51,106 nt of DNA from Candidatus Omnitrophota bacterium. GTDB taxonomy: Bacteria; Omnitrophota; Gorgyraeia; Tantalellales; Tantalellaceae. The stretch covers positions 1 to 51,106 of the forward strand of contig WJMG01000004.1 in assembly GCA_014728075.1 (NCBI GenBank). Direction: 5' to 3'. Made by a program: the position numbers and the translations under genes. The number at the start of each line of letters is the position of its first letter. Positions within the stretch are counted from its first letter, which is position 1. The notes below the pieces were generated by a model. That model saw only the letters and a list, made by a program, of their open reading frames with translations. It was not told where the DNA came from and did no database searches. Shown in pieces: positions 2,248-51,106 of the stretch.

Positions 2248-3246
2248 TCAATCGGCGATGATCTTGATATTATCAGTATCGGTTTCCGTGACGGTATTGT
2301 CCTCTTCCGCGTTTCTCTCTATAAGGTCCATCCTCCTCTTATCCAGGAGATTGGTCCGCTGAACCTGCCTGTTCTCCTCTATTTTGTTCTTAACACCGTC
2401 CATCATCAGATTATTACGCATCTGAAGGGACTTCATTTGAACAGGAGCTGTTCTTGCCGGCACCAGCTGGTCCGAATGTCCGTAATCTTTTCTCGTTATA
2501 CTCGAAGAGATCCTGTTAAGCTTGTTCTCAACGGAAGAGATCGTCCTGGCCAGCCTTTTTTCGTTCATCTCTACCTTTGCCTCATCCGCTGTCATCTCCT
2601 TTTTCCTGTTCATCATTTTCCGGGGCAGGGTTATCTCGTTACGAAGGGCCTCGAGTTTACCTTCCGGCATCCTCTTCTTTTTCTCGGGCCTGTCGAACTT
2701 TTTGACCCTGGTCGTAAATCCTCTTTCGATAAGGTACTCCGTCCGGGCTAATTTTCCGCTTCTTTCGATCGGCCTGATAAAAACTACCCCGTCGAACACT
2801 TCCAGATCAAGCACCTTGCCGTCCGTACGCATCTTCCAGCCCGTCCCCCTCGCTCCGCAGGCAGCGGCAGGGGTCCTTATCCTGAAAGTCTCCCCTTTGT
2901 GGAGGTTCTTGAGAAAAGTAATAATCTCACCTTTTACAAGCTCCAGCCGGTCCTCATCCGTTATCATTATTATCGCTTCGGTAGATCCGCCGAGTTTGAC
3001 CACATTGCCGCCTTCTTTGTCAAAGGCTAATTCAAGCGATGCCTTTCTTTCGGTCCTGACCACATCTCCACCGGAAAGCTCCATGCCTTCTTTGACAACG
3101 ACCGGTTTTTCAGCTCCTTTTATCATTACGCTTACATTGCCTTCGACGGCGATCACAACGGCCTTACCTTCTCCGTTATCGCCGTTGCAGGGTACGGACA
3201 TAAAGATCAAAGCTAAAACTACTGACATCGCTAACAGTTTCTTCAT
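2248..3246 (-). CDS. FecR-domain secreted protein
   Basis: This 332-residue protein begins with a signal peptide (residues 1-22, MKKLLAMSVVLALIFMSVPC). Residues 30-160 form a FecR-like domain: AVEGNVSVM, VKEGMELSGGDVVRTE, LELAFDKEGGNVVKLGGST, LVKGEI, and FRIRTPAAACGARGTGW. The last is the typical FecR ..TP.A..GVRGT.f motif. The remaining half (170-332) is basic, helical and rich in Arg/Asn/Lys, of unknown function. FecR domains occur in anti-sigma regulators and in envelope proteins. This one has no cytoplasmic anti-sigma part and no neighbouring sigma factor, so a periplasmic or cell-surface role is likelier. It lies directly downstream of an orphan response regulator and has a good ribosome-binding site (AAGGGGG). 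Confidence 0.8.
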   Translation of the reverse strand: MKKLLAMSVVLALIFMSVPCNGDNGEGKAVVIAVEGNVSVMIKGAEKPVVVKEGMELSGGDVVRTERKASLELAFDKEGGNVVKLGGSTEAIIMITDEDRLELVKGEIITFLKNLHKGETFRIRTPAAACGARGTGWKMRTDGKVLDLEVFDGVVFIRPIERSGKLARTEYLIERGFTTRVKKFDRPEKKKRMPEGKLEALRNEITLPRKMMNRKKEMTADEAKVEMNEKRLARTISSVENKLNRISSSITRKDYGHSDQLVPARTAPVQMKSLQMRNNLMMDGVKNKIEENRQVQRTNLLDKRRMDLIERNAEEDNTVTETDTDNIKIIAD

Positions 3247-3341
3247 GACGAACCCCCTTGCGAAAATTACTTTTAAAAACTTTTTACTTATTTTTCAAAA
3301 AAAACTCTTTCCCTGCTTTCACTTAAAGCTTACACGGAAAG

Positions 3342-3358
3342 TGTTAACTTTTTGTTAA
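3342..3358 (-). promoter_or_regulatory. 11-bp-phased direct repeat, possible response-regulator binding site
   Basis: On the minus strand TTAACA occurs twice, at 3358-3353 and 3347-3342, exactly 11 bp apart, in an AT-rich 166-bp gap between the response regulator and the FecR gene. OmpR/PhoB-type regulators bind tandem half-sites with 11-bp phasing. A TATAAT (3385-3380) lies just upstream. The link to the neighbouring regulator is inference; two six-base copies are thin evidence. Confidence 0.35.
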
Positions 3359-3412
3359 TCTTATATTATTTTTCGATTAATTATACGAACGGTAAACGGG
3401 CGGCAAACAATC

Positions 3413-4108
3413 CTATACGGCATCCTCGAACTTATATCCTACCCCCCGGACATTCTTTATAAGGTTTCCGGCCGGGCCCAGTTTTTTCCTCAGGTGGCGT
3501 ATATGAACATCTACCGTCCTTTCGATCACCACCTTTTCCTCGCCCCAGAGGTAGTCGAGTATTCGGTCCCGGGAAAACACCTGGCCCTTTCTGGAAAGCA
3601 GAAGCTCGAGTATATTGAATTCGGCGGGCGTAAGGTCTATCTTACGGCCCCGCACATGAACTTCATACTTTTTAAGGTCCATCACGAGCGAACCTTCCTC
3701 CGCCTCCAGGACCTTTTCGCTCTCGACGGACCGGCTTCTCCTCAGTACGGCCTTCATCCTGGCTTCAAGCTCTTTAAGGGAAAAAGGTTTTACCACATAA
3801 TCGTCCGCTCCGAAATCGAGCCCCGAGACCTTACTGGCTTCGGAGTCCTTTCCGGAAAGCATTATGACGGGGATATGAGCGGTCTTGTCCTTCTGCCTGA
3901 GCTTCCTGCAGATATCAAAACCGGTTGAACCGGGCAGCACCACATCGAGTATCATAAGGTCGGGTGTATTCCTTGACAGAAAAGAGAAAAGCCCGTCCTC
4001 GCTCTGAAAAGACTTCACCCTGGCCCCCTGCATGTGAAGAAAGCCGGAAATTATGTGTATTATGTTCGGGTCGTCATCTACCAGAACGACCAGTTTGCCC
4101 TCTAGCAT
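3413..4108 (-). CDS. OmpR/PhoB-family response regulator without adjacent kinase
   Basis: This 231-residue protein has two domains. Residues 1-120 are a receiver with the acidic pocket DDD at 11-13, phosphoacceptor Asp55 (MILDVVLPG), Ser85 and the conserved Lys107 (DDYVVKPF). Residues 135-231 are a winged-helix effector with DLTPAEFNILELLLSRKGQVFSRDRILDYLWG in outline and the closing VRGVGYKFE. It therefore binds DNA in response to phosphorylation by a histidine kinase. No kinase gene is present within the window. It follows a small membrane protein and uvrB with almost no spacing and precedes the FecR gene, whose upstream region carries an 11-bp-phased repeat that could be its target. Confidence 0.93.
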   Translation of the reverse strand: MLEGKLVVLVDDDPNIIHIISGFLHMQGARVKSFQSEDGLFSFLSRNTPDLMILDVVLPGSTGFDICRKLRQKDKTAHIPVIMLSGKDSEASKVSGLDFGADDYVVKPFSLKELEARMKAVLRRSRSVESEKVLEAEEGSLVMDLKKYEVHVRGRKIDLTPAEFNILELLLSRKGQVFSRDRILDYLWGEEKVVIERTVDVHIRHLRKKLGPAGNLIKNVRGVGYKFEDAV

Positions 4109-4117
4109 ATATTCCCT

Positions 4118-4510
4118 TTATATATTTACGGGCCTTCGCCTGAAGATCAACAGCGAGACCAGGATAACAAAATGATAAAAAAGCGAGATGATGTTCTTGA
4201 TCCCCGCGGGAACAAAGACGGCCGTTTCCCAGTTCAGGGCCAGCAGGCCCGCGAACAAAAGCACCTTCTGTATGATTATATAACCTGAAAAGAAAACTAG
4301 CAAGACCCGGGCCCATTCCTTCATGCAGATCAGACCGGCCCCTAAAGCAAACGAAATGACCGCCGAAACGATAACGAAAATGTAAATGTTAAGAGGCTTT
4401 TCGGGAAACCCCCGCAGAAAGCCCAGCTTACCTGATACGAGGAAAGAGATAGTGAACAGTCCTATCAGCATCTCTATTGTCCCGATGATCAGATAGACCT
4501 TCCTGCTCAT
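4118..4510 (-). CDS. Four-helix integral membrane protein of unknown function
   Basis: This 130-residue protein is strongly hydrophobic, with four predicted membrane helices at about residues 5-26, 41-62, 67-90 and 100-124, and a short basic tail (FRRRPVNI). I do not recognise the family. It starts one base after the uvrB stop and ends 9 nt before the response regulator, so it lies in the same transcription unit. A membrane partner of the regulator is conceivable from position alone, but there is no sensor-kinase domain in it. Confidence 0.65.
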   Translation of the reverse strand: MSRKVYLIIGTIEMLIGLFTISFLVSGKLGFLRGFPEKPLNIYIFVIVSAVISFALGAGLICMKEWARVLLVFFSGYIIIQKVLLFAGLLALNWETAVFVPAGIKNIISLFYHFVILVSLLIFRRRPVNI

Positions 4511-4511
4511 A

Positions 4512-6488
4512 TCAGCCCTCTTTCCGGAGTATTTTCTTCAGCTTTTCGATCTGGTCCCTGTAAACTATGGCTTTTTCGAACTGCAGGTTCCTGGCGGCAT
4601 CTTCCATTTCGGACTCAAGCTGGGAGATAACTTCGTTTATATCGTACTCTTCGTCGGTCTCACCGGTAACTTCCTGCACTATCTCTTTGGCCTGTCTGTA
4701 AGCTTCGATACCGTCCTTTATGGCTTTTTTTATGGTGCGTGGTTCGATATTATGCCGCTCATTATATTCTATCTGTTTTTTCCGCCTTCTTTCCGTCTCC
4801 TCAATGGTCCTTTTCATGGCGGCCGTAACGGTGTCCGCGTAAAGCAGGACCAGCCCGTTCACATTCCGGGCGGCCCGACCGGCCACCTGGATAAGGGAAG
4901 TAGCGCTTCTGAGAAACCCTTCCTTGTCCGCGTCGAGCACGGCTACAAGAGAAACTTCCGGGAGGTCCAATCCCTCCCTCAACAGGTTTATTCCTACCAG
5001 GCAATCGAATTTTCCCATTCTGAGGTCCCGTATAATATCTATCCTGTCCAGGGCGTTAATTTCCGAATGCAGGTACCTCACTCTCATTTTCATATCCTTA
5101 AGGAATCTTGTAAGTTCCTCGGACATTTTTTTCGTCAGAGTGGTAACCAGCGTCCTTTCGCCCCTGCCGGCCCTTTTCCGCACCTCGTCGACCAGATCGT
5201 AGATCTGTCCTTCTGTAGGCCTTACTTCAACGGGAGGATCGATTAGGCCCGTAGGCCTTATGACCTGTTCGGCTATCGTCGCGCTTTTCTCAGACTCAAA
5301 GCTTCCGGGTGTAGCGGAAACAAAAAGCAGCTGGCCGACCGTATCCATAAATTCGTGGAACTTGAGAGGCCGGTTGTCCAAAGCCGAAGGAAGCCTGAAC
5401 CCGTAATCAACCAGGTTCTGCTTTCGGGCCCGGTCACCGTTGTACATAGCATGAAGCTGGGGCAGCGTCACATGCGACTCGTCGATTATCACCAGAAGAT
5501 CCCTGTTGAAATAATCCAGCAGGCACCAGGGCCTGCTGCCGGGCTCTCTTCCCGATAAATGCCTGGAATAGTTCTCGATACCGTTACAGTAACCCAGCTC
5601 CTTCAACATGTCGATATCGTATCTGGTCCTTTTGAGAAGCCGCTGTGCCTCGAGAAGTTTTTCGCAGCGCTTGAGCTCTTCGACCCTCTCCATAAGCTCC
5701 GTTTCGATGGACGCAACGGCTTTTTCGATCTTATCCTCGGTGGTCACGAAATGCTTTGCCGGATATATGGCCGCTTTTTCCAGGTCGCTTATGATCTCGG
5801 AAGAAACCGGGTCAATTTCGGAAATGCGGGTAACTTCGTCGCCGAAGAACTCTATGCGCAGAGCCGTCTGCTTATAAGCGGGAAAGACCTCGACTATGTC
5901 CCCCTTTACCCTGAATTTAGCCCGCTGCAGTTCCATGTTGTTGCGCTCATACTGGATATCGACCAGTTTACGGAGGATCTCGTCCCTCGAAACCTCTTCT
6001 CCCCTGGATACATTTACCAGCATACTGGAATAGTCTTCCGGAGAACCCAACCCGTATATGCAGGAAACGCTCGCTACTACCAGCACATCGTTGCGGGAAA
6101 AAAGAGAACTTGTCGCGGACAGTCTCAACCGGTCTATATCCTCGTTTATCGAGGCGTCTTTTTCTATATATACATCCGTCTGCGGGACATATGCCTCTGG
6201 CTGGTAGTAATCGTAATAGCTTACGAAATATTCGACGGCATTCTTCGGAAAAAATCCCTTGAACTCCGAATAAAGCTGGGCGGCAAGGGTCTTATTGTGT
6301 GAAATGACGAGGACGGGCCTGTTAAGCCTTTCGACTATATTAGCCATCGTAAAGGTCTTTCCGCTTCCCGTGACACCGAGGAGTGTCTGATACGGCTCAC
6401 CGTTACCGACGGATCTGACTATCCTGTCGATCGCTTCCGGCTGGTCTCCGGCAGGCACAAGATCGCTAACTAGCTGAAATCTCTCCAT
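4512..6488 (-). CDS. uvrB: Excinuclease ABC subunit B
   Basis: UvrB verifies damage and hands DNA to UvrC in nucleotide excision repair. The 658 residues match the usual length. Walker A GVTGSGKT is at 38-45, followed by the beta-hairpin region rich in Tyr ([15 protein letters not shown]), Walker B-type DESH, the helicase motifs [10 protein letters not shown] and QVAGRAARN, and a C-terminal UVR motif ([20 protein letters not shown]). The start overlaps the nadC 3' end by 23 nt. No SOS-like inverted repeat is visible upstream because the gene is embedded in the hom-to-uvrB run. Confidence 0.98.
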
Positions 6489-7380
6489 TTTTCAGTATGA
6501 CCTCTAAGCTGAAATCGACGGGATCTACGGATCCGGTCAGGGAACCTGAAGATATGATCTCTATGCCCGTTTCCGCGTAATCTCTGACATTTTCCAGGTT
6601 TATGCCCCCCGAGACCTCGAAGAGCACTTCACCGTCCAGGCGCATCTTTTTCCTCAGATCCACCGCCTTCCGAACGGTTTTCGGGGACATGTTATCGAGC
6701 ATTATGACATCCGGCTTTTCCGAGAGGGCGTACCCGCATTCGACAAGGTTTTCCACCTCTATCTCTACACGGATATTTTTCTGCACGCTCGCGCGCGCTC
6801 TTCTTATCAGGTGGGGAATTATAGTTCCGCTACTCTTCTCTCCGGTACTGGAACTGAAAGCTCTTATGTGGTTATCCTTGATAAGCACCATATCCCACAA
6901 TCCCTTTCTGTGGTTCTCGCCACCCCCCACCGTTACGGCGTACTTCTGGAAATACCTGTGAAGAGGAAGGGTTTTTCGCGTATCGTATATCTTTACACCG
7001 GTGCCGGATACCTTATCCACCATCGCTCTGGTCTTTGTGGCGACCCCGCTCAGTATACTGAGATAGTTCAGCGCGGTCCTTTCGGCCTTCAACACGGAAG
7101 CGGCTCTTCCCTCGATGAAGGCGGTTTCCATGCCGTCGTCAAGCGCGTCCCCGTCTACCGCCTGCGGCCGGAATTTAAGTTCGGGGTCAACGCGGGCGAA
7201 AATGCGTTCGACTATGTCTATACCGCAAAGCACCCCCCGCTGCCTGGCTAGAATGACCGAATCGATCAGCGTATCCTCATCGAGAACGGAAGAGGATGTT
7301 ATATCTCCCTTCCAGATATCCTCTTTAAGCGAGAATCTTATTATCGCGTCCACTCTTTTAAGGTCAAGTCCGCTTATCAT
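6466..7380 (-). CDS. nadC: Nicotinate-nucleotide pyrophosphorylase (quinolinate phosphoribosyltransferase)
   Basis: NadC converts quinolinate and PRPP to nicotinate mononucleotide in de novo NAD synthesis. The 304 residues include the N-terminal EDI..GDITS segment, [37 protein letters not shown] and LIKDNH, then the C-terminal barrel motifs [22 protein letters not shown] and ISSGSLT. These cover the PRPP- and quinolinate-binding residues of the family. It overlaps rluB (17 nt) upstream and uvrB downstream, so it is translationally embedded. nadA and nadB are not in the window. Confidence 0.96.
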
Positions 7381-8095
7381 CCGACAACCCTTTCAATTTT
7401 AAGACCTCTGCCGGGGTAAGGTAGCGCCACCGGCCCTCCGTCAGGCCTTCCAGAGTAAGCCCGGCGTACCTCACCCTTTCAAGGCTGACCACTTTCGCTC
7501 CTATACTCGATATCATCGACCTTATCTGCCTCTTTCTCCCTTCGTGTATGGTCATAGCAAGTAAAGTCCGCCCTTTCTTCTCCTCCAGGACCTTTACACT
7601 GCACGGACTGGTCTTCTTCCCCTCTACAAAAACCCCTTCGGAAAGGCGCCGCAGCTTTTCGGGGGTGATCTTTCCGGACACCTCGGCCCTGTACTCTTTT
7701 TCTACTTCAAAACTCGGATGTGACAGCCTGTGGGCGAGCTTACCGTCATTGGTGAGAACAAGCAGACCCGTAGTATCCTTGTCCAGCCTGCCCACGGGAT
7801 ACACCCTTTCTTTAAGGCCCGGGACAAGATCGGTCACCTTTTTCCGGCCATGGGTATCTTTCACTGTGGTTATAACGCCCGCGGGCTTATAGAGCAGTAT
7901 GTATTTCTTTTGCTCTTCGGCGGACAGCGGCCGGCCCATGACCGTGATCCGGTGCAAGGACGGGTCCAGACGATATCCCTTTTCTCTGACAACTTTTCCG
8001 TCAACCTCTACCAGACCATCTTCGATCAAACCCGCGGATCGTCTTCTTGAAGCTATGCCCGCGTGGGCCAGTACCGACTGGAGTCTCTTCTTCAT
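7364..8095 (-). CDS. rluB: rRNA pseudouridine synthase, RluB/RsuA family
   Basis: This 243-residue protein has an N-terminal S4 RNA-binding domain (residues 1-60: VLAHAGIASRRRSAGLIEDGLVEVDG). The catalytic RsuA-type domain carries YKPAGVITTVKD and the active-site Asp motif GRLDKDTTGLLVLTNDG, then EGRKRQIRSM. It isomerises a uridine in ribosomal RNA; RluB (23S) and RsuA (16S) cannot be told apart safely by eye, and RluB is the commoner assignment for single copies. Its ATG overlaps the valS stop (ATGA). Confidence 0.9.
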   Translation of the reverse strand: MKKRLQSVLAHAGIASRRRSAGLIEDGLVEVDGKVVREKGYRLDPSLHRITVMGRPLSAEEQKKYILLYKPAGVITTVKDTHGRKKVTDLVPGLKERVYPVGRLDKDTTGLLVLTNDGKLAHRLSHPSFEVEKEYRAEVSGKITPEKLRRLSEGVFVEGKKTSPCSVKVLEEKKGRTLLAMTIHEGRKRQIRSMISSIGAKVVSLERVRYAGLTLEGLTEGRWRYLTPAEVLKLKGLSDDKRT

Positions 8096-10779
8096 TCAAG
8101 TGAAGCCAGATTTTCTTTAAGGTTCCGGATAGAGATCTCGAATTTATCTTTTTTAGCCTTTTCCTTTTCGACGACCTCGGCTGGCGCCTTGGAAACGAAG
8201 CTCCGGTTGGACAGTTTCTTCTCTATACTTTTCAGGTAGTTTTCCATTTCACCCAGTTTTTTTCCTATCCGGTCCTTCTCCTTGTCTATATCTATCGACC
8301 CGCCCAGCGGAACGAAAATACGGATCTTCCCGGATAGAGCCGAAACGGACCGGGAAGGCCTTTCGGTAGCCGTTCCCGCCTCAAGCACCCGGCAGCCCGC
8401 GAGTTTCTCCAGGTAGATACGGTTATCGCCGATAAGAACAGCTTCCTCTTCCGTGTCCGTAAGAAAAAGGGCTTCGACCTCACCGGAATTCGGTATATTC
8501 CAGAAGGCCTTAACATTACGGATGGAAGTTATCAAGCCGATTATTTTTTCCATACTGGGAACAGATCCGTCATCCGCCAGGCCGCGAAGGGGTTCCGGCC
8601 ACCCGGCTGTCATGAGGCAACCCCTGTCCTTTCCGGGCATGTTCTGCCATATATTCTCGGTAATGAAGGGCATAAAAGGATGGAGAAGTTTAAGACACTC
8701 TCCCAGCACCAGAACGAGTATATTATCAACGGCTTCCCGGTTTTCGGCGAATTTGGAGATCTCAAGGTACCAGTCGCAGTATTTATGCCATATGAACTCG
8801 TACAGCGATGAGGCCGCGTCGTTGAACCTGTAAGCCTCGAGGCTCTCGTTCACCGCGCCGACTGTCCCGGCAAGGGAAGAAAGTATCCATTTATCCGCGA
8901 TAGTAAGGGCGTTCTCTCCGGGAAGCTCCCCGCGGGCCTTTTCCCCGGAGCTCATCAGAACATATCTTGAAGCGTTCCACAGCTTGTTGGCGAAATTCCT
9001 GCCTGTTTCGAACTTTTCTTTCGAGAGAAAAACATCCTGCCCCTGGGAGGTTATGGAGATTATGCTGTACCTGAGAGCGTCACTGCCCACTTCCCGGATA
9101 ACATCCATGGGATCTATCACATTCCCCAGCGACTTGGACATTTTAGTACCCGTCGCATCCCTTACCGTACCGTGTATATAAACATCCCTGAAAGGTATAT
9201 CGCCCATAAAATAAAGACCGGACATTATCATCCTCGCCACCCAGAAGAAAATTATCTCCTGGGCAGTTACAAGGGCGTCGGTGGGGTAAAAATATTCCAG
9301 CTCTCCGGTCTTTTCGGGCCATCCCATGGTCGAGAACGGCCACAGCCACGAACTGAACCAGGTATCCAGGACATCGGGGTCCTGTTCCATGGAAGCCGAA
9401 CCGCACACGGGACACTCGGAGGGCGCCTCTCCCACGACTATCCCTGCTTTCCCGGGAGCGTCAACCGCAATGTCCCTCACATCCGCCGAACCGAAGCAAT
9501 CCCGGCAGTACCAGACGGGTATCCTGTGCCCCCACCATATCTGTCTGGAAATACACCAGTCCCGGATGTTCTCCATCCAGTTAAGGTATACCTTCGACCA
9601 CCTGGGAGGATAAAAACGGACCCGGTCTTCCTTTACTACCTTTATGGCTTCTCCGGCCAGAGGCTTCATCCTCACGAACCACTGTTTGGAAAGGCGGGGT
9701 TCCACTACGGTATGGCATCTGTAACAGTGTCCCACCGCATGGTGGTGTTCTTCCGCACGGACAAAAAGTTTCCTCTGTTTAAGGTCTTCGATTATCGCCT
9801 CACGGCACTCGAACCTGTCCATGCCTTCGTAATCCCCGCCGAGATCGTTTATTGCAGCGTCCGGACCCATGACATTAAGCCTTTCAAGCCCGTGTCTCGA
9901 CCCCATTTCGAAATCCACGGGATCGTGCGCGGGCGTGACCTTCAGTGCGCCGGTACCGAATTCGGGGTCCACGCTTTCGTCAAAAATAACATCGAGTTCA
10001 CGCCCCAGGATAGGAAGCAAAAGCTTTTTACCTTCAAGGTGCCGATATCTCGGATCTTTGGGGCTTACCGCGACGGCTACATCCCCCAGCATCGTCTCCG
10101 GACGCGTGGTAGCGACCACCACGAAATCCTCGTTAGCTTTTTCCAGCTTCTCTCTTCCTTTTACCGGGTACTTAATGTAGTAGAGCATCCCGAGGACTTC
10201 TCTGTGCTCGGCCTCTTCGTCGCTCAGGGCGGTAGTGCACCTCGGGCACCAGTTTATGATATAATCCCCCTTGTATAGAAGCCCGTCCTCGTAGAGCTTT
10301 ACGAACACCTTCCTGACAGCGTTTGAAAGCCCTTCGTCCATGGTAAACCTGGTCCTGTCCCAGTCACAGGAACACCCCAGGCTCTTGAGCTGCCGTATGA
10401 TAGTGGACCCGTGTTCTTCCTTCCACTTCCAGACCTCCTCAAGGAACTTATCGCGTCCGAGATCCGTCCTCTTCAGGCCTTCCCCTGCCAGCTTTCTCTC
10501 GACGACATTCTGGGTAGCTATGCCGGCATGGTCCGTACCCGGCATCCAGAGAGTTTCGTGCCCCTGCATTCTTTTCCAGCGTATAAGTATGTCCTGGATC
10601 GTATTATTGAGCGCGTGCCCCATGTGCAGTATACCGGTAACATTCGGGGGCGGTATCACGATACTGTAGGATGGTTTGCCGCTGTCCGGCCGGGCGCGGT
10701 TCAGGCCGTTCTTTTCCCATAGCTTATAGATCCCGCCCTCTACTTCGGCGGGGGAATATTTTGTGGGGATATCCTTCAT
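8092..10779 (-). CDS. valS: Valyl-tRNA synthetase
   Basis: This class I synthetase of 895 residues charges tRNA-Val. The HIGH-type signature is PPPNVTGILHMGHAL (HMGH at 52-55) and the KMSKS loop is in TGTKMSKSLGNVIDP. WMPGTDHAGIATQ and WFSSWLWPFSTMGWP are ValS-typical. The editing domain and zinc-knuckle-like CRDCFG...CPVCG cysteines are present. The C-terminal coiled-coil tRNA-binding arm (residues about 835-895) is complete. The gene overlaps cimA and rluB by ATGA contacts, which ties valine charging to branched-chain amino acid genes. Confidence 0.98.
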   Translation of the reverse strand: MKDIPTKYSPAEVEGGIYKLWEKNGLNRARPDSGKPSYSIVIPPPNVTGILHMGHALNNTIQDILIRWKRMQGHETLWMPGTDHAGIATQNVVERKLAGEGLKRTDLGRDKFLEEVWKWKEEHGSTIIRQLKSLGCSCDWDRTRFTMDEGLSNAVRKVFVKLYEDGLLYKGDYIINWCPRCTTALSDEEAEHREVLGMLYYIKYPVKGREKLEKANEDFVVVATTRPETMLGDVAVAVSPKDPRYRHLEGKKLLLPILGRELDVIFDESVDPEFGTGALKVTPAHDPVDFEMGSRHGLERLNVMGPDAAINDLGGDYEGMDRFECREAIIEDLKQRKLFVRAEEHHHAVGHCYRCHTVVEPRLSKQWFVRMKPLAGEAIKVVKEDRVRFYPPRWSKVYLNWMENIRDWCISRQIWWGHRIPVWYCRDCFGSADVRDIAVDAPGKAGIVVGEAPSECPVCGSASMEQDPDVLDTWFSSWLWPFSTMGWPEKTGELEYFYPTDALVTAQEIIFFWVARMIMSGLYFMGDIPFRDVYIHGTVRDATGTKMSKSLGNVIDPMDVIREVGSDALRYSIISITSQGQDVFLSKEKFETGRNFANKLWNASRYVLMSSGEKARGELPGENALTIADKWILSSLAGTVGAVNESLEAYRFNDAASSLYEFIWHKYCDWYLEISKFAENREAVDNILVLVLGECLKLLHPFMPFITENIWQNMPGKDRGCLMTAGWPEPLRGLADDGSVPSMEKIIGLITSIRNVKAFWNIPNSGEVEALFLTDTEEEAVLIGDNRIYLEKLAGCRVLEAGTATERPSRSVSALSGKIRIFVPLGGSIDIDKEKDRIGKKLGEMENYLKSIEKKLSNRSFVSKAPAEVVEKEKAKKDKFEISIRNLKENLASLE

Positions 10780-12389
10780 TTTCTCTTTTTTCTTTTTTTA
10801 GCTTTTTTCCCTGCCTTTTCCCTGCTTTCGTCCTTTACGAACTTGTACTCGAACGAATCGATCAAAGCGTTCCAGCTGGCTTCAACGATATTTTCCGAGA
10901 CACCTACGGTCCACCAGGAATCATGTTTATCCTGCGATTGTATAAGAACCCTCACGCTCGCCGCCGTGCCTTCTGTCTCGTCAAGCACCCTTACCCTGAA
11001 ATCGGACAGGTGCATTTGCGCCAGCGTGGGATAAAATTCCGTAAGGGCTTTCCTCAAGGCCTGGTCCAGAGCATGTACGGGTCCGTCCCCGAGGGCTACT
11101 GTATGCCTCTCTTCTCCGCCTATCTCTATCCGTACGGTAGCTTCGGAAATTATGCCGTCCTCTCCTCTTTTTTCGACTATTACCCGGAGATCCGTCAACT
11201 TGAAGTGTAATTTGCCTGAACCCGCCGCCCTGCGCATCAGAAGAGCAAGGGACGCGTCAGCCAGTTCGAACTGGTATCCCCGGCTTTCTTTTTCCTGTAT
11301 AAGCATGAGGATATCCCTGGCATTGCTGCCGGCGCTTTCCAGATCTATGTTAAGCTCCCGAGCTTTACCCGCCACACTGGACTTCCCGGAAAGCTCCGAT
11401 ATGAGCATGCGCCTTCTGTTGCCGACCCTGGACGGCTCTAAATGTTCGTATGTACGGGGATCCTTGTTCATGGCGTTGACATGCACTCCCGCCTTATGGG
11501 CAAAAGCGCTTTTCCCCACATAAGGTTGGGAATCCAGCTGTTTAACATTAGCTATCTCCGCGATGAACCTCGAGGCGTCCGTCAGCTCGCGGAATTCGAA
11601 TCCGGCGAGGCAATCCATTCCGAGCTTGAACTTGATCGCGGGCATGATGGACATGAGGTTCGCGTTACCGCACCTTTCCCCGTAACCGTTCATTGTACCC
11701 TGAACCTGGGAACACCCCGCCTGTACGGCGGCAATGGAATTAGCCACGGCCATATCCCCGTCATTGTGGACATGTATACCCAGCGGAGCATCGGTAAAGT
11801 CCGCAACATCCTCTACTATCTCGAAGATCTGGCTGGTAAGCATACCCCCGTTCGTATCGCAAAGGACCAGTGTTTCCGCGCCGCCATCCACGGCGGCCCT
11901 TAAAGTCTCCAGAGCGTATTCACGGTTATCCTCGTAACCGTCGAAAAAATGTTCGGCGTCGAATATAACGCGCCGGCCCTTTCGGGTCAGATACCTGACG
12001 GTGTCAGAGACCATCTTCAGGTTCTCCTTTAAGGATGTCTTGAACACTTCCCTGACATGCAGGTCCCAGCTTTTCCCGAAAATGGTCACATATTCGGTCC
12101 CGGCGCCCAAAAGAGCTTTTACTACCGGGTCAGAGGCCGTCCTTCCTCCCGCCCTTCTGGTGCTGCCGAAAGCGACGAGCCTGGCTTTCCGGAGCTTAAG
12201 GGAACGCGAGGCCTCTTTAAAGAACGCGTCCGTCTTTGGGTTCGCGCCGGGCCATCCACCTTCGATGAAATCCACTCCCAGATCGTCGAGCTTTTGCGCC
12301 ACGCGCATCTTATCCATTACGGAAAAAGAGATACCCTCTCCCTGTTCGCCGTCCCTGAGGGTAGTATCGTAAATTTGGACCTTTTTCAT
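10776..12389 (-). CDS. cimA: (R)-citramalate synthase
   Basis: CimA condenses pyruvate and acetyl-CoA to citramalate, giving 2-oxobutyrate for isoleucine without threonine deaminase. The 537 residues begin YDTTLRDGEQGEGISFSV, with metal-binding HVHNDGDMAVANS and the GTMNGYGERCGNANL motif. The C-terminal regulatory (LeuA dimer) domain spans about residues 390-520, before a Lys/Arg-rich tail. The GEQGEG start and the length above 500 fit the CimA branch of the isopropylmalate synthase family better than LeuA. It follows lysC by 30 nt and overlaps valS. The very basic tail (KAGKKAKKRKKRK) is unusual. Confidence 0.9.
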   Translation of the reverse strand: MKKVQIYDTTLRDGEQGEGISFSVMDKMRVAQKLDDLGVDFIEGGWPGANPKTDAFFKEASRSLKLRKARLVAFGSTRRAGGRTASDPVVKALLGAGTEYVTIFGKSWDLHVREVFKTSLKENLKMVSDTVRYLTRKGRRVIFDAEHFFDGYEDNREYALETLRAAVDGGAETLVLCDTNGGMLTSQIFEIVEDVADFTDAPLGIHVHNDGDMAVANSIAAVQAGCSQVQGTMNGYGERCGNANLMSIMPAIKFKLGMDCLAGFEFRELTDASRFIAEIANVKQLDSQPYVGKSAFAHKAGVHVNAMNKDPRTYEHLEPSRVGNRRRMLISELSGKSSVAGKARELNIDLESAGSNARDILMLIQEKESRGYQFELADASLALLMRRAAGSGKLHFKLTDLRVIVEKRGEDGIISEATVRIEIGGEERHTVALGDGPVHALDQALRKALTEFYPTLAQMHLSDFRVRVLDETEGTAASVRVLIQSQDKHDSWWTVGVSENIVEASWNALIDSFEYKFVKDESREKAGKKAKKRKKRK

Positions 12390-12419
12390 TTTTCCCTCTT
12401 TTTGTGTTTGTTCCTGAGA

Positions 12420-13673
12420 TCAGGATCTTACGGCCCGCTTCTTCCGTGATAGCGTCTTTTTCCCGAGACCGAAAGAATCGTGAAGGGCCTTTATGGCTTT
12501 ATCCGCGTCGGTTCTATGGATAACACAGGATATCTTTATCTCGCTGGTCGATATCATTTCTATATTGATCTTCCGCGCGGCAAGTGCCTTGAACATCTTC
12601 GCCGCGACCCCGGAATGGCTTCTCATACCTATTCCGACAACCGATATTTTCGCGATATCCCTGTCATACTTCGCTCCTTTGGCGCCGATCTCCTTATTGA
12701 CCTTCCTGACGACCTCCTGGGTTTTGGCAAGGTCGCTCGTGGGGACCGTGAACGAGATATCGGTCTTCCTGGTCCTGGATATGTTCTGTATTATCATATC
12801 GACATTGATCCTGGCCTCCGCCAGCCTCTCGAAAAGTTTACTGGCTTCGCCGGGCTTATCGGGAACATCACATACCGTGACCTTGGCCTCCTTTTTATTG
12901 GCGGTCACGCCTCTGACCAAGACATCTTCCATGGATCTTACCTCCTTGCTTATCATGGTACCTTTCTCTTTACAAAAGCTCGCGCGCACATGTATCGGGA
13001 CATTGTATTTTCCGGCAACCTCTATGCTCCTGGCCTGCATCACCTGGGCCCCCAGAGAAGCCAGCTCCAGCATCTCCTCGTATGATATGCTTTCCAGCTT
13101 ACGGGCGTTCTTCACTAACCTGGGATCGGCCGTGTATACCCCTTTCACATCGGTATAGATCTCGCATTCTCTTGCTTTGAGCACCTTAGCGAGGGCCACT
13201 GCCGTCATATCCGAGCCTCCTCTTCCCAGGGTGGTTATCTCCTGGTCCCCGCTTACTCCCTGGAAACCGGCTACTATCACCACGCTTCCCTTTTTAAGCT
13301 TTTCCTTGATCCTGGAAGTGCCGATATCCACTATCCTGGCCTTGGTATGGGAAGAATCGGTGCGGATGCCCACCTGGGCGCCGGTAAAGGAGATCGCGTC
13401 GACCCCGAGCTTATGCAGCGCCATGGCCAGAAGCGAAACGGAAACCTGCTCGCCGGTAGAAAGCAGCATATCCATTTCTCTCTCGGAAGGGTTTTTGTTT
13501 ATCTGGTCAGCGAGTTTTATGAGTTCGTCGGTCGTGCCTCCCAGGGCCGACACGACTACCACCACCTTGTACCCCTTCCTGCTGTAGGACGCTACCCGCC
13601 GGGCCACCTTTTTGATCTTATCTACATCACCTACGCTGGTCCCGCCGTATTTCTGTACTATTATGTCTTTCAT
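12420..13673 (-). CDS. lysC: Aspartate kinase
   Basis: LysC phosphorylates aspartate, the first step to lysine, methionine and threonine. From the chosen start (ATG at 13673, with AGGAG just upstream) the protein has 417 residues. The catalytic domain includes VQKYGGTSVG, FTGAQVGIRTD, GFQGV, TLGRGGSDMTAVALA and YTDVKGVYTADPR. Two ACT domains follow (from about residue 270 and 345), as in feedback-inhibited monofunctional enzymes. An in-frame start 11 codons upstream exists but lacks a ribosome-binding site. It sits between the homoserine-kinase candidate (40-nt gap) and cimA. Confidence 0.96.
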   Translation of the reverse strand: MKDIIVQKYGGTSVGDVDKIKKVARRVASYSRKGYKVVVVVSALGGTTDELIKLADQINKNPSEREMDMLLSTGEQVSVSLLAMALHKLGVDAISFTGAQVGIRTDSSHTKARIVDIGTSRIKEKLKKGSVVIVAGFQGVSGDQEITTLGRGGSDMTAVALAKVLKARECEIYTDVKGVYTADPRLVKNARKLESISYEEMLELASLGAQVMQARSIEVAGKYNVPIHVRASFCKEKGTMISKEVRSMEDVLVRGVTANKKEAKVTVCDVPDKPGEASKLFERLAEARINVDMIIQNISRTRKTDISFTVPTSDLAKTQEVVRKVNKEIGAKGAKYDRDIAKISVVGIGMRSHSGVAAKMFKALAARKINIEMISTSEIKISCVIHRTDADKAIKALHDSFGLGKKTLSRKKRAVRS

Positions 13674-13713
13674 GGTCTCCTGCTCTCTGTCACGGATGCC
13701 CTGCAACAGGGCC

Positions 13714-14916
13714 TCATATACTGTCAGACATCAAAAGTTTCATAAGTTCATGTCCTTTGGACAGGAACCTGCTTCCCGCCCTCGCGGACCTTTCCGTAAA
13801 TACCGTAACCGTATCCGCCGTTACCCCGGCGCCCATCATAGCGAAAGGGACCGGATCGGCGGTGTGCGTCCTCATTTTTATCGGGGTGGGATGATCCGGG
13901 AGCAACAGCACCCTGAAATCATCACGGCCATCGAATGCCTTCAGCACAGGACCGGTTATCTTGCTGTCGAAATTCTCGATAGCCTTTATTTTTTCCCTCA
14001 TATCCCCGTTGTGGCCGGCTTCGTCGGCGGCTTCAACATGCACAAAGACAAAATCTTTGTTCTCAAGCACTTTCAAAGCGGCCCGGGCCTTGCCTTCGTA
14101 ATTGGTGTCATAATATCCGGTAGCACCTTCGACCTCTATAACTTCAAGCCCTATTATACGGCCTATTCCTTTCAGGAGGTCAACGGCGGATATGATTCCT
14201 CCTGTAACCCCGTAAGCTTCTTTCATCGTGGGCATATCGGGGCTTTTTCCCTGCCCCCATGCCCATATCATGTTGCCCGGGTTCTGTCCGAGGTCTATCC
14301 TCACCTTGTTTATATCGTGGTCCTGAAGAACGGTCTTTGACCTTTCCATTATTTCCACCAGTTCAGCGTTCTTTGGCATGAATTTCGTCACGGCCCGCTC
14401 CAGGATATCGTGCGGAGGGAAACATTTAACACCTGTAAGAGCGCTGGCCTCTTCGGGAGAAGAGCATTTTATCACCATCAGGTTCCTGTAGCTGGTGCCG
14501 GGATAGAACTTTACCCTATCGCTGCCCAGCTTTCTGTCCAACTCTTTGACCAGCACCCTGGTCTCTTCTGTTGTAATGTGCCCGGCGCTGTAGTCCATCA
14601 TCTTGTCGTCGAAACAGGTGACGAGGTTGAACCTGAAAGCGACATCTTCTTCCTCGAGGCGGACCCCGAGATTGGCTGCCTCCATAGGACCTCTGCCGCA
14701 ATAATATTTCCGCGGGTCATATCCCAGAATGGACAGGTTGGCCACATCGCTGGCGGGGACCATCCCTTTGGGTATGTTCTGGGACATACCCACTATCCCT
14801 TCTCTCGCGATAGTATCCATGTTCGGGGTTATGGCGGCCTCCATACAGGTACGATCGTTCAACTCTTCAAGCGGCAGGCCCGCCATACCGTCGGGCACAA
14901 GAACTATATACTTCAT
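13714..14916 (-). CDS. Phosphoglycerate-mutase-like enzyme, proposed homoserine kinase
   Basis: This 400-residue alkaline-phosphatase-superfamily protein resembles archaeal-type cofactor-independent phosphoglycerate mutase (ApgM). The VPDGMAG metal motif is at 7-13, the nucleophile Ser56 is in [16 protein letters not shown], and [13 protein letters not shown] and LLPDHPTP supply further metal ligands. It lies between thrC and lysC, and no GHMP-type ThrB is present in the cluster. A bacterial subfamily in exactly this context has been proposed to act as homoserine kinase (the TIGR02535-type assignment, from memory). I infer that role; glycolytic mutase activity is the alternative. ATG 14916 is chosen because GAAGAGGTCAG precedes it; it overlaps thrC by 50 nt. 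Confidence 0.85.
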
Positions 14917-46782: not shown

Positions 46783-47370
46783 TCATTTTTTTTCAGATGG
46801 CCGAAGAGGGAACTCCCGGAGCACCGAATGCATGGCTCCGCCGGGGTCAAGTTCCGACCTGAAAAGAGTTACCTTTTTGACGGGCAATACGGCCGCGGGA
46901 ATAACTGCCTTTTCCGCCGCTTCCCTCAATTTTCCGGTATTTCTGCCTCCACGGACCCTTCCCAGGGTAAGATGCGCCCTGAAGGCCCTTTTTTCCCTTT
47001 CGAACCCCAGGCTCTCCAGCGCGGAAGAGACCGCAGCGGCCAGGGCCTCGACTTCCTTTTTCCCGCGGGAAACGCCCGCCCATATTACCCTGGGGCGTGA
47101 CCACGAAGGGAAAACACCGATACCGGAGAACGAGATCCGGAAAAAAGGGACCTCCCCTGAAACCCGGGAAAGAGCCTCGGATATCAACGGCACGCTGCTT
47201 TCGTCTACATCGCCCAGGAATTTAAGGGTAAGGTGCAGGTTCCCGGAACGGGCCCATTTCACCTGGGCTCCCGAAGATTTCAACGAACGGATAAGCCCGC
47301 AGAGTTCACTTTTCATCTCCGGAGCGAGCTCCAGGGCCACAAAGGTCCGTATTTTTCCCTGTTCAGACAT
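46783..47370 (-). CDS. thpR: RNA 2',3'-cyclic phosphodiesterase (2'-5' RNA ligase family)
   Basis: This 195-residue 2H-family protein opens 2',3'-cyclic phosphate ends of RNA. It has the two HxT motifs, NLHLTLKFLGDV and RAHLTLGRVRGG, in tandem repeats of the fold, plus RTFVALEL at the start. ATG 47370 overlaps the pncC 3' end by 8 nt, so it is coupled. The longer frame to 47436 lies entirely in pncC and is unlikely. pncC (cinA)-thpR-recA order is seen in other bacteria. Confidence 0.92.
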   Translation of the reverse strand: MSEQGKIRTFVALELAPEMKSELCGLIRSLKSSGAQVKWARSGNLHLTLKFLGDVDESSVPLISEALSRVSGEVPFFRISFSGIGVFPSWSRPRVIWAGVSRGKKEVEALAAAVSSALESLGFEREKRAFRAHLTLGRVRGGRNTGKLREAAEKAVIPAAVLPVKKVTLFRSELDPGGAMHSVLREFPLRPSEKK

Positions 47371-47869
47371 TTTCCCGGATAAAATCAATAACTGCCTGCG
47401 CGAATTTAAGCTTAAGTGAGATCCTGTTGCCGTCAAGGACGATCTTTTTGGTGCGGTCGCCGTCTTCGGAAGAAAAAGCGATGTAGGCGAGCCCCACCGG
47501 TTTGCGGGCCGACCCTCCTCCGGGCCCCGCTATGCCGGTTATGGCCGCGGCCATATCCGCCTTTAATACCCTGCGGGCGCCTTCGGCCATAGCCCTTGCG
47601 GTCTGCCGGCTTACCGCTCCGTGTTCGCCGATAACATCCGGGGGCACATTCAACAGGTCCGTCTTCGCGCCGTCGGAATACGATACTATGCCCCCCTTGA
47701 AAGAAGCGGACGCTCCGGGGACATTGGTCATCCTGTGCGCCACAAGGCCGCCCGTACACGATTCGGCCAGCGCGAGGGTCTTCCTGCTTTTTTTAAGGGC
47801 AAGCAGTATCTTTTCCTCTGGCCTTGCGGCCTGACGCCCAAGCTTACTGTTCTTTGAAACTGAGTTCAT
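47363..47869 (-). CDS. pncC: Nicotinamide-nucleotide amidase (CinA C-terminal domain)
   Basis: PncC deamidates nicotinamide mononucleotide to nicotinate mononucleotide in the pyridine nucleotide cycle. The 168 residues match a stand-alone CinA C-terminal domain: LALAESCTGGLVAHRMTNVPGASASFKGGIVSYSD in outline, GAVSRQTARAMAEGAR, AITGIAGPGGGSARKPVGLAYIA. There is no N-terminal COG1058 domain. No Shine-Dalgarno is present; TATAAT ends seven bases before the ATG, which suggests a leaderless mRNA. Confidence 0.94.
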   Translation of the reverse strand: MNSVSKNSKLGRQAARPEEKILLALKKSRKTLALAESCTGGLVAHRMTNVPGASASFKGGIVSYSDGAKTDLLNVPPDVIGEHGAVSRQTARAMAEGARRVLKADMAAAITGIAGPGGGSARKPVGLAYIAFSSEDGDRTKKIVLDGNRISLKLKFAQAVIDFIRENV

Positions 47870-47943: not shown

Positions 47944-50900
47944 TCAGGCCTGAGCCCTGATATACTCCTCCAGTTCCTTATATATAGACCTGTCCGCTCC
48001 CTTGACCGCGCCCGGGACCACCCGGATAAAGAAAGTACTGTTGAATGCCCCTGTGCCGCTGTCAAAACACATCTCCGTTATCTCTTCGGCTTCCAGATCG
48101 GTGATGTTAGGTATATCCCTGTAGCATCTCAGAAGGTATTCAGATAACTCATCCTTCTCGCTTTTCGACAATCCTTTTTCTTCCAGTATCCTGGCCAGGC
48201 TGGCCACTATGGTGAAACGGACCACCTCGGTCATAGGATAGTAGTACCCCGGCCTCCATTCGCTGTCGTCGACGCTCGTGACCGTACCCTTGCCGCTGAG
48301 CCAGCCGAAATCCTCAAGGTTGCTCCTGTTAGAGATGACTATAATGTTCTCCGCCTCTATTTTCCCTTCCGAAACAAGCCTCCGCATGTCCCCGGACAGG
48401 GAAACGCTGTTGCCGCGCCGGATCGATATATCCCTTACGAGCCTTCCCAGTTTATCGCCCCTCCTGGAAAGCCTGTCAAGCTCCGTGACCACATCTCCCA
48501 CGGCCTTACGGGTCCATCCCTTTGCCAGGTCCTCGTCCACCGCGAGAATCACCTTTCCCCTGTTATATCCCAGCGAGGCCATCCTGGCCTTTATATCAGG
48601 GACCACTATATTCTCATTGGACTTCAGGATATCACCGGGCCCGGCGGCGCCGTTCAAATCGTCAAGAGGCGCTTTCGGGCTCTTTCCCCGGACACGGTCC
48701 CTTATCCTCGGGTAAAACTGTTCTATTATGCGGTCCCTTATGCCCAGGGCTGCGGGCCTTCCGCATTCCGGAAGGATAACGCCCATATACCCTCCTTTCC
48801 AGACCAGCCTTTCCGGTGAGGGGTGGCTTCTTTCCATCCCGTTCTCGATGAGCATGGCCGCGCGCCTCAGCATCATCTCGGTTCTCTCTCTCTCCGCGGG
48901 GTCTATCGACGCAGCGTAAGTTTCGGCAAAAGGCGTTATGCCTTCCGCCTCGTGCTCCTCGACGGTCCTATGGCCGTTCGCGAAGAGTATGCCTTTGACT
49001 ATGTACCTGTCGTGAGGTATGCGGAATCTGTATTTTTCCGCGGCGGACAGAAGTTTTTTCCTGTCGGAAAGAAGATCCCTGACCTTCCTGATGACCGTGC
49101 CGTGGAAACCGGTATCGACTATGGTTATCTCCCTCTTCGCAAGCACACCCCTGTCAAAAAGGTGTTTTATTATCTCTTCGTCCGTATTGTTCCGCATGAC
49201 CTTTCTGGTGAGGAACAACTTCCCGGGTTTGTCCTTCCCGCCGAAAACATCGTCTTCCGCCAGGCCCGATATTATTTTTTCGAAAAATTCCGAGCCCATG
49301 AAGGCAAAATACAGGCCCTTGTCCGGGTCATCGCTGAGACGGCCGCCGACCAGTTTGACGAATTCACAGAGCGGTTCTTCGATCTCCAGGAGCTTTCTGT
49401 AAAGAAAATACCTCAGGAAATCCTCGGCCCTTTCCAGGACCTCTCTGTCATCGTATGTTTCCAGAACTTTTCCGAGGCGCGTGAGCGCCACGGCCACGAG
49501 GTTTACCGGATAAGCTTCAAGCCTTTCGGCCGCGTCTGCGGTTTTCAGAGAACTGTTGAAAACCGTCTCTTCCAGCAGGTTCTTGACCGTATGGTACTGC
49601 ATAAGTTCCATGTATTCGGGAGTAAAAACCCTCGCGTACAGACGCTTTATCACACCCAGTCCCGCGCTCCCCCGGAACTGCAGGAACTTTTTCAGGTATA
49701 AGGAATATTCGCTTCCGTTGGACGGGTCCATTACAATGCGGATAACCTCGTCAAAAAGATCTTCTCCGTCCTTGTTCCTTACCGCCCCGGCAAGTTCTTT
49801 ATTGAGATCGTTCCGGGACTCGAATTCACTTATGGCCGGTTCCCCCACAGCCCGCAGTCTTTCGGCAAGGTACATAAGACCCGCGACCTCTATCAAAAGC
49901 CCGTCGGCCCTGTCAGCCTCTAAGATCTCTTCCAGGGTTTCAAGCTCCAGTTCGATCTGCAGGATGGTCTCGCGCGGGTGACCTCCCCGTATTTGAAAGA
50001 TAAATTCTTCTCCGCTTAGATCGAACCCGCCGGAAGATACCCTGCTTTCGGGCTCATCCTCCCTCCCGCTCTCCGTAAGGGCGTCTTCATCCGTTCCGGA
50101 CCCGGGGTCCTCGGTCTTTACGGGCTCATCCGCCGGCCCCCCCCCTTCAGGAGCGGTGGTGATAATCGCTTTTCCCGTCCCCTCTTCTTCTCCTGTTCTC
50201 GTTACGGCATCGTGTCCGGCCGTATGCCCCTTCACGCTTTTTATTCCCTCTTTTCTCTCTCTCGGTTTTCCCGCGCTTTCCGGGGCGGCACGCTTTTTGT
50301 CGCGGCCCACTTTCTTCATGACCAGCACAAGTTCGCCGTTAAAGTCCTCTTTGTGCTCCACCTCGAACCCGGCCTCCTCCGCTATCCTGACCGTAGCTTT
50401 CGCCAGGCGGCTCTGCCTTTTCATGTCTATGGCCGTGTTAATAATGCATATGCCGCCTTCATCGAGAAGGCCGCGGCAAGCCTCGATATATTTTCGGCCG
50501 GTATCGCGGCTGCTGAAATCCTCGAGGTCTACCAGTGGATACCTCGCGATGACCCGGTCGAATCTTTGCCCGCCGAAGATCTTTTCGCTTTCCATGAGGT
50601 CCCCGGTCACCACATCCAGACTTCCCCCGCTTCTGGCCGCATCGGCAGCCGCGTCGTCCTTGTCCAGACCTTTAACCGTTATTCTTTTCCCCGTCGCTTC
50701 GGCAAACCTCTCCAGCGCCAGCATAAAAGTGCCCTGAGCGCATCCTACTTCCAGTATTCTCTTTCCGTCAAGGTCCCCGGACTCCCTGAGTTCGAGAAAG
50801 AGGCTGCCGTATCCCAGAGCGTTCATCGCGGCGCCTCTTCTTCGGGTTCTCATGTAATGATCGAAGCTGATACCTGTAAGGGCCATGCCCAGTTCCGCCT

Positions 50901-51106
50901 GGTCACGGCTTTCCGCGAGTATCCTTAATTTTTTCTCCGGGATAAGAGAAGGCCGGGTCGAAGGCGCCTTTTCCTCTCTCATCGTTACAGGCGGCGTTTC
51001 TGTTCCCTCTTCCGGACGGACGATCTTTTCGATCCCGCCGAAGACCCGGGAAAAGATGCGTTTTACGAAAGGCCTGGAAGATAAGAAGGTCTCAAGATAC
51101 CCCTTC
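47944..51106 (-). CDS. Giant SAM-methyltransferase fusion protein of unknown function, 5' end outside window
   Basis: The first ATG is at 50982, but the frame stays open for 41 more codons to the right edge (KGYLETFLSSRPFVKRIFSR and on) and the ATG has no ribosome-binding site. The gene is therefore probably longer. Numbered from that ATG: residues 70-225 are a class I methyltransferase (motif I ILEVGCAQGTF at 76-86, LDKDDAA, GDLM, NTA). 228-320 is a low-complexity acidic linker. 320-600 is helical and unrecognised. Around 618-630 is TIVDTGFHGTVIR. 795-910 looks alpha/beta (KVILAVDEDLAKGW, IIVISNRSNLEDF, VTSVDDSEW). I recall similar C-terminal modules in long Omnitrophota proteins, which is unverified. 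Confidence 0.85.
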   Translation of the reverse strand, partial: KGYLETFLSSRPFVKRIFSRVFGGIEKIVRPEEGTETPPVTMREEKAPSTRPSLIPEKKLRILAESRDQAELGMALTGISFDHYMRTRRRGAAMNALGYGSLFLELRESGDLDGKRILEVGCAQGTFMLALERFAEATGKRITVKGLDKDDAAADAARSGGSLDVVTGDLMESEKIFGGQRFDRVIARYPLVDLEDFSSRDTGRKYIEACRGLLDEGGICIINTAIDMKRQSRLAKATVRIAEEAGFEVEHKEDFNGELVLVMKKVGRDKKRAAPESAGKPRERKEGIKSVKGHTAGHDAVTRTGEEEGTGKAIITTAPEGGGPADEPVKTEDPGSGTDEDALTESGREDEPESRVSSGGFDLSGEEFIFQIRGGHPRETILQIELELETLEEILEADRADGLLIEVAGLMYLAERLRAVGEPAISEFESRNDLNKELAGAVRNKDGEDLFDEVIRIVMDPSNGSEYSLYLKKFLQFRGSAGLGVIKRLYARVFTPEYMELMQYHTVKNLLEETVFNSSLKTADAAERLEAYPVNLVAVALTRLGKVLETYDDREVLERAEDFLRYFLYRKLLEIEEPLCEFVKLVGGRLSDDPDKGLYFAFMGSEFFEKIISGLAEDDVFGGKDKPGKLFLTRKVMRNNTDEEIIKHLFDRGVLAKREITIVDTGFHGTVIRKVRDLLSDRKKLLSAAEKYRFRIPHDRYIVKGILFANGHRTVEEHEAEGITPFAETYAASIDPAERERTEMMLRRAAMLIENGMERSHPSPERLVWKGGYMGVILPECGRPAALGIRDRIIEQFYPRIRDRVRGKSPKAPLDDLNGAAGPGDILKSNENIVVPDIKARMASLGYNRGKVILAVDEDLAKGWTRKAVGDVVTELDRLSRRGDKLGRLVRDISIRRGNSVSLSGDMRRLVSEGKIEAENIIVISNRSNLEDFGWLSGKGTVTSVDDSEWRPGYYYPMTEVVRFTIVASLARILEEKGLSKSEKDELSEYLLRCYRDIPNITDLEAEEITEMCFDSGTGAFNSTFFIRVVPGAVKGADRSIYKELEEYIRAQA

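What the first reader, a model, noticed from the sequence alone, without database searches (positions are those of the whole stretch)
47944..51106. Giant multidomain protein: methyltransferase, acidic linker and two unassigned domains, extending past the window
At least 1,053 codons are open with no stop, continuing upstream of the first ATG to the window edge in the same codon style. Only the methyltransferase part (about residues 70-225) is recognisable. The 320-760 region contains VDTGFHGT, reminiscent of the VDIGW.GT strings I associate with some HAD/polysaccharide-cluster proteins. The last 220 residues look like a separate alpha/beta domain with invariant-looking acidic motifs (AVDEDLA, VDDSEW). 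A modifying enzyme acting on a glycan, lipid or protein partner is conceivable. This is the strongest candidate for undescribed biology in the window.
Basis: partly seen in the sequence, partly recalled or inferred. Interest (0 to 1): 0.75.

Follow-up and report, generated by a model that had tools for sequence, protein, structure and literature searches.

The report
Giant secreted-type protein with conserved ends
The cut-off gene is the last fifth of a 5,709-residue protein from an uncultured Omnitrophota bacterium, one of a large family whose two ends are conserved (an export-type signal at the front, a previously unnamed domain ending in alanine at the back) while the enzymes carried in between are swapped, which suggests a dedicated way of sorting very large proteins.

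Summary
The window is a whole contig. Its last 27 bases are the first 27 of another contig of the same genome; joined in frame they give one 5,709-aa gene. Synteny supports the join: smc–[this gene]–cinA–thpR–recA–recX–alaS lies on one contig in a relative. The 'C-terminal alpha/beta domain' (CTD, 47947–48666) is an undescribed, strongly diverged domain family: 14 matches in this genome, found in 27 of 285 genomes searched in the phylum (Ca. Omnitrophota), nearly always at the very end of large proteins. The last residue is alanine in 81 of 91 distinct proteins (background 14/199), with all four Ala codons used. The same proteins begin with a Sec-type signal peptide and a TLxxxSxF block. Between the ends they carry changing, cytoplasm-type modules (kinases, HD, methyltransferases, helicase, HTH arrays, CofD), even at the same chromosomal position. 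I read this as a bookended, exported cargo family with a C-terminal recognition or sorting domain; export and recognition are inferred, not shown. The methyltransferase call is supported; the middle region (48667–50031) stays an orphan. Giant Omnitrophota ORFs are known; I found this two-ended architecture in no source held.

The parts
47944..51106 (-). 3' part (1,053 codons plus stop) of a 5,709-aa bookended giant gene; the other 4,656 residues lie on contig C24 (L003:3-13994 minus)
   Evidence: synteny
51080..51106 (.). 27-base end overlap with the start of contig C24
50347..50799 (-). class I SAM-dependent methyltransferase-like module, motif I ILEVGCAQG at 50731-50757; a related module follows the signal peptide of another giant (L055)
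   Evidence: (sub-threshold Pfam/NCBIfam, PADLOC mad2 E 7e-12)
50032..50310 (-). low-complexity, mildly acidic linker (93 aa)
48667..50031 (-). orphan middle region (455 aa) with VDTGFHGT at 49096-49119; no family, no homologue at the sensitivity used
47947..48666 (-). C-terminal bookend domain (CTD), Rossmann-like order of strands and helices in a moderate-confidence model, ends in ...EEYIRAQA
47947..47949 (-). terminal alanine codon (GCC), the conserved last residue of the family
47363..47869 (-). cinA, conserved downstream neighbour of the bookended gene (context, with thpR, recA, recX and alaS further downstream to 42201)

Best explanation
The gene is one member of a multi-copy Omnitrophota family of large 'bookended' proteins. 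The front end is a Sec-type signal peptide plus a conserved TLxxxSxF block; the back end is a ~200-240-aa alpha/beta domain (CTD) whose last residue is alanine. The interior is replaceable cargo made of cytoplasm-type enzyme and regulatory modules; in this gene at least two histidine-kinase modules, an HD hydrolase-like domain, a methyltransferase and several unnamed modules shared with other family members. Most likely mechanism: the signal peptide takes the chain across the inner membrane, and the CTD, read at its C-terminal carboxylate/alanine by a tail-binding partner, sorts, anchors or matures it (working like the C-terminal sorting domain of another secretion system, not a member of one). 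The cargo would then act at or beyond the cell surface, plausibly on a partner or prey cell. Shown by sequence: the two conserved ends, the position of the CTD, conservation of the last residue at amino-acid level, cargo exchange at a fixed locus, and intact motifs in several cargo modules. Inferred: export, recognition of the tail, site of action.
For: CTD sits at the extreme C terminus of ORFs of about 1,000-7,000 aa in Omnitrophota genomes; 14 matches in the own genome. Last residue Ala in 81/91 distinct complete CTD proteins versus 14/199 other ORFs of the same loci, Fisher p 3e-45; 46 clusters at 40% identity, 38 all-Ala; four Ala codons and three stop codons used, so selection is on the residue. 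Proteins found by the N-terminal profile without a full-length CTD match mostly keep a P...L...SA/AA/RA-like tail, e.g. a 10,544-aa ORF. N-termini: signal peptide with AxA-like site and TLxxxSxF block; many have no other predicted membrane segment. Cargo: HTH arrays, SF2 helicase with intact motifs, CofD, HD, macro plus DNA methylase, HATPase, methyltransferases. Modules of the giant recur in other members in other positions. Syntenic locus next to cinA in at least nine genomes with different cargo.
Against: No experiment shows export or processing. ATP-dependent cargo in an exported protein is odd unless it reaches another cytoplasm or some proteins are membrane-anchored with cytoplasmic parts: the giant itself has further membrane segments. 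No dedicated partner was found: the one tail-protease family tested, S41, is present in nearly all genomes regardless of the CTD, and recurrent neighbours are housekeeping genes. Ten of 91 CTD proteins do not end in Ala (5 V, 2 T, 2 L, 1 D). Some family members are split by stop codons.
Confidence: 0.5

Rival explanations
1. Membrane-anchored signalling scaffold: the hydrophobic N terminus and internal membrane segments anchor a giant sensor/kinase complex; cargo works in the cell's own cytoplasm and the CTD is a ligand-binding or docking domain with a Rossmann-like fold.
For: The giant carries two histidine-kinase modules (second one with HEIANVLA, N- and G-boxes intact) and further hydrophobic segments at 209-292 and 2007-2025. 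Two sister proteins on C84 look like hybrid PAS/HisKA/HATPase/receiver kinases. CTD model has an alpha/beta order.
Against: Many members have the signal-like N terminus as their only hydrophobic segment yet carry helicase, HTH, HD or CofD cargo; with a positively charged n-region the rest would lie outside. A docking fold alone does not explain a conserved last residue.
Confidence: 0.25
2. The alanine tail is a proteolysis signal: a C-terminal processing protease (S41/Prc) or a ClpXP-like system reads the small uncharged C terminus and matures or destroys these chains.
For: Terminal residues are nearly all small or hydrophobic (A, V, T, L) with A/S/K/R before them; an S41 peptidase is present in the own genome and almost all relatives. 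PDZ-containing C-terminal processing proteases exist as a class (PMC6686036).
Against: S41 is equally present in genomes without the CTD, so it explains nothing specific. A degron needs no 200-aa domain.
Confidence: 0.15
3. Lineage-specific accretion: long ORFs accumulate duplicated domains by drift, with conserved ends only because of shared ancestry.
For: Cargo is highly diverged and mosaic, the middle region is an orphan, some copies are split by stops.
Against: Ala kept with all codon choices across clusters of <40% identity, catalytic motifs intact in several modules, fixed locus in many genera.
Confidence: 0.08

Closest known systems
Giant ORFs of Omnitrophota (Seymour et al. 2023, PMC10066038; Ca. 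Velamenicoccus archaeovorus giant protein)
   Same: Same phylum, very long ORFs with few annotated domains, proposed role in cell-cell interaction
   Different: That paper calls them poorly conserved with few annotated domains and counts ORFs over 20 kb; here the joined gene is 17.1 kb and conserved front and back ends with swapped cytoplasm-type cargo are shown. The V. archaeovorus protein was not tested for the CTD
Type IX secretion C-terminal domains (Bacteroidota; PMC11285876)
   Same: Works like: signal peptide at the front, conserved C-terminal domain on many unrelated cargo proteins of one phylum
   Different: T9SS CTDs are Ig-like beta-sandwiches; this CTD is predicted alpha/beta, longer, and ends in a conserved alanine. 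Not a member
Polymorphic effector/toxin families (general knowledge)
   Same: Fixed trafficking parts with exchangeable functional modules
   Different: Here both ends are fixed and the interior varies; no immunity gene or toxin domain was identified
C-terminal processing protease substrates (general knowledge; PMC6686036, PMC8909930)
   Same: Recognition of a small uncharged C-terminal tail
   Different: No protease link shown; a whole folded domain precedes the tail

Membership tests
Huge proteins (over 5,000 aa; definition of PMC11573180) | single ORF above 5,000 aa | tested here: met
   5,709 aa after joining C25 and C24
Omnitrophota giant ORFs as counted in PMC10066038 | ORF longer than 20 kb | tested here: not met
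   17,130 bases including stop; family members up to 10,544 aa exist in the same genome
Class I SAM-dependent methyltransferase | glycine-rich motif I after strand 1 | tested here: met
   ILEVGCAQG at 50731-50757; family matches 5.7e-6 to 7e-12
Class I SAM-dependent methyltransferase | match above a curated Pfam cut-off | tested here: not met
   best Methyltransf_31 20.4 bits, cut-off 27
Bookend family defined here | Sec-type signal peptide plus TLxxxSxF block at the N terminus | tested here: met
   MKRSSLYDSLFLRVISIILLITFISSDIARA-YP...DTLATGSVN; own-genome profile match E 8.4e-23 (the giant is one row of that profile)
Bookend family defined here | CTD at the extreme C terminus ending in Ala | tested here: met
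Type IX secretion cargo | Ig-like beta-sandwich CTD | tested here: not met
   predicted alternating strands and helices, pLDDT 68, pTM 0.64
Response regulator receiver domain (CTD) | profile similarity to PF00072 | tested here: not met
   hhalign probability below 1% against own-genome receivers
HAD / polysaccharide-cluster proteins with VDIGW.GT | homology of the region around VDTGFHGT | tested here: inconclusive
   no match and model pLDDT 43; reference family itself not compared
Sec export | protein crosses the inner membrane | not testable with these tools
   only N-terminal sequence features seen

The most novel reading that the evidence does not exclude
Omnitrophota have a dedicated, undescribed export and sorting route for very large multi-enzyme proteins: a Sec signal in front and a C-terminal domain read at its final alanine behind, delivering swappable cytoplasm-acting cargo (kinases, helicases, DNA-binding arrays, methyltransferases) to the cell surface or into partner cells.
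Probability: 0.3. Interest if true: 0.85.

Novelty: new variant of a known kind. Interest (0 to 1): 0.62.

Why it matters
Giant proteins of Omnitrophota are a noted puzzle: few annotated domains and, by published account, little conservation. A shared front end and a shared, alanine-ended back end give a handle for finding and grouping many of them, for predicting that they are exported, and for searching for the machinery that reads the tail. A fixed chromosomal locus (smc–X–cinA–thpR–recA–recX–alaS) with changing cargo lets cargo exchange be followed between genera.

Tried and rejected
Scans of viral contigs with the CTD alignment, the window CTD and the middle region found nothing; the CTD query is also absent from phages and plasmids and the VDTGFHGT region from plasmids. 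The full CTD alignment was too diverged for a pattern scan; a closer subset worked and gave only Omnitrophota. Receiver-domain homology of the CTD was suspected from the order of elements and the conserved proline before the last helix, and rejected by profile comparison. Foldseek of the CTD gave no hit at E<=0.001 (best 0.11, TM-scores of listed hits at most 0.40); the model is only of moderate confidence. Structure prediction of the middle region from one sequence failed (pLDDT 43). Short PDB matches of the middle region to an epoxidase (E 0.16) were taken as chance. S41 protease count does not follow CTD presence. Neighbour analysis for a dedicated transporter returned housekeeping genes, which revealed the synteny instead.

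Full report
What is in the window. The minus-strand frame 47944..51105 is open for 1,053 codons and reaches the window edge. The window is the complete contig C25 of a 2.1-Mb, 93-contig genome, and its last 27 bases are the first 27 bases of contig C24, with no other match in the genome. C24 carries a minus-strand ORF of 4,664 codons starting at an ATG with a signal-peptide-like N terminus and ending ...YFYLKGYLETFL, the same residues with which the window frame begins. Joined, the frame is kept and gives 5,709 aa. The next gene upstream is smc; downstream in the window come cinA, thpR, recA, recX and alaS. In locus L095, from another Omnitrophota genome, smc, a 1,593-aa relative, cinA, thpR, recA, recX and alaS lie in this order on one contig, which supports the join independently.

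Organism. The scan of genome contigs with the closer CTD subset returned eight loci, all titled Candidatus Omnitrophota, one of them Ca. Tantalella remota. The window's own genome is placed with them by kinship in the genome search; its name is not shown.

Methyltransferase and middle region. Residues ~103-253 of the 1,053 match class I methyltransferase profiles, below Pfam cut-offs but consistently, and carry motif I ILEVGCAQG. The closest relative found of this module sits directly behind the signal peptide of another giant (L055, 35% identity over 169 aa), so the module moves. The middle region (48667-50031) has no Pfam match, no convincing PDB match, and no real homologue in 237 genomes of the phylum; AlphaFold from a single sequence failed.

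The C-terminal domain. The last ~240 residues (47947-48666) match many ORFs of relatives, in almost every case at their extreme C terminus. A 19-sequence profile finds it in 27 of 285 genomes of the phylum; a 67-sequence profile finds 14 matches in the own genome, the weakest partial. No Pfam, NCBIfam or PADLOC family covers it. A ten-sequence AlphaFold model (pLDDT 68, pTM 0.64) shows a leading helix and alternating strands and helices; Foldseek against the PDB gives no significant hit and receiver domains are excluded at profile level. I therefore call it Rossmann-like in order of elements only.

The last residue. Among 91 distinct complete CTD proteins, 81 end in Ala, 5 in Val, 2 in Thr, 2 in Leu and 1 in Asp; among 199 other dominant ORFs of the same loci 14 end in Ala (Fisher p 3e-45; the sequences are related, so the p-value overstates independence). 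Clustering at 40% identity leaves 46 clusters, 38 of them all-Ala. GCG, GCA, GCC and GCT and all three stop codons occur, so the residue rather than a DNA motif is conserved. Several proteins found through the N-terminal profile, whose CTD is too diverged for a full match, still end ...LISA...LIAA...LTRA; others end SL or SV.

The front end. Members with a complete 5' end mostly start with a positively charged n-region, a hydrophobic stretch, an AxA-like site often written (D)I(A/V)WA-(Y/D/N)P, and a block T-L-x-x-x-S-x-F. Many have no other predicted membrane segment (a simple hydropathy scan, not a trained predictor).

The cargo. Interiors of members carry Cro/C1 HTH arrays, an SF2 helicase with ATATGKT, DEVHH, GLTAT and QSIGRGLR, CofD, HD, macro and DNA-methylase domains, HATPase/histidine kinases, methyltransferases, UPF0489 and others. 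Modules of the 5,709-aa giant recur singly in other members in different orders: histidine-kinase modules (672-973 and 2423-2732), HD (1169-1350), a 943-aa stretch shared with the syntenic giant of G011, and several unnamed modules.

Fixed locus, changing cargo. A bookended gene lies next to cinA in G000, G001, G006, G011, G012, G013, G016, G017 and G018. At this position the recognised cargo is HATPase (G001, G006, G011), HATPase plus CofD beside a second, 6,838-aa member (G016), UPF0489 (G012), HD (G018), methyltransferase (G013/L095) and the mixture described here. The ends and the neighbourhood persist while the interior changes.

How it most likely works. Shown: conserved ends, terminal alanine, mosaic cargo, intact motifs in several modules, syntenic locus. 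Inferred: the signal peptide exports the chain; a partner reads the CTD at its C-terminal alanine and sorts, anchors or matures the protein; the cargo acts at or beyond the surface. The last step is the weakest: ATP-using cargo outside the own cytoplasm makes sense only if it reaches another cytoplasm or if parts are folded back through the membrane. Published work reports giant ORFs as common in Omnitrophota, proposes adhesion, predation or parasitism, and calls the ORFs poorly conserved with few annotated domains (PMC10066038). I found no description of the two-ended architecture in the papers held; preprints are not held, and a preprint on giant genes of predatory bacteria known to me only from memory could not be checked.

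Verdict. Novelty lies in the bookend architecture and the alanine-ended domain family, not in the existence of giant ORFs as such.

Noticed in passing
L149 (G000:C84:15000-29840) 3191-9439 and 9754-14841: Two adjacent giant ORFs with the same N-terminal block carrying PAS, HisKA, HATPase and receiver modules; the first (2,082 aa) has no recognisable CTD but still ends in ...LLEVCA.
   Followed up: partly
G000:C32, start near 44319 minus; C terminus in L192: A 10,544-aa ORF in the same genome with a weak N-terminal profile match and a CTD-like tail ...FILIPNIEKIDLDSLRKEIENYEKILIAA.
   Followed up: partly
L037 6195-19604 (G000:C24): Four bookended genes in tandem on one strand, 920 to 1,294 aa, none with a Pfam match in the two scanned individually.
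   Followed up: partly
L049:4613-8314: Array of several Cro/C1-type HTH domains behind a signal peptide and in front of the CTD, an unusual exported-looking DNA-binding design.
   Followed up: no
L040:8368-14214 (G000:C31): SF2 helicase with all main motifs intact inside a protein with signal peptide and CTD.
   Followed up: partly
L018 268-2043, L109 15907-18174, L129 851-3574, L074 1450-3205: Front and back ends of one bookended gene on neighbouring ORFs separated by a stop or a short gap: decaying copies, frameshifts or assembly errors.
   Followed up: no
window 50347-50799: The methyltransferase module matches the PADLOC model mad2 (E 7e-12), probably only through the shared methyltransferase fold.
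   Followed up: no
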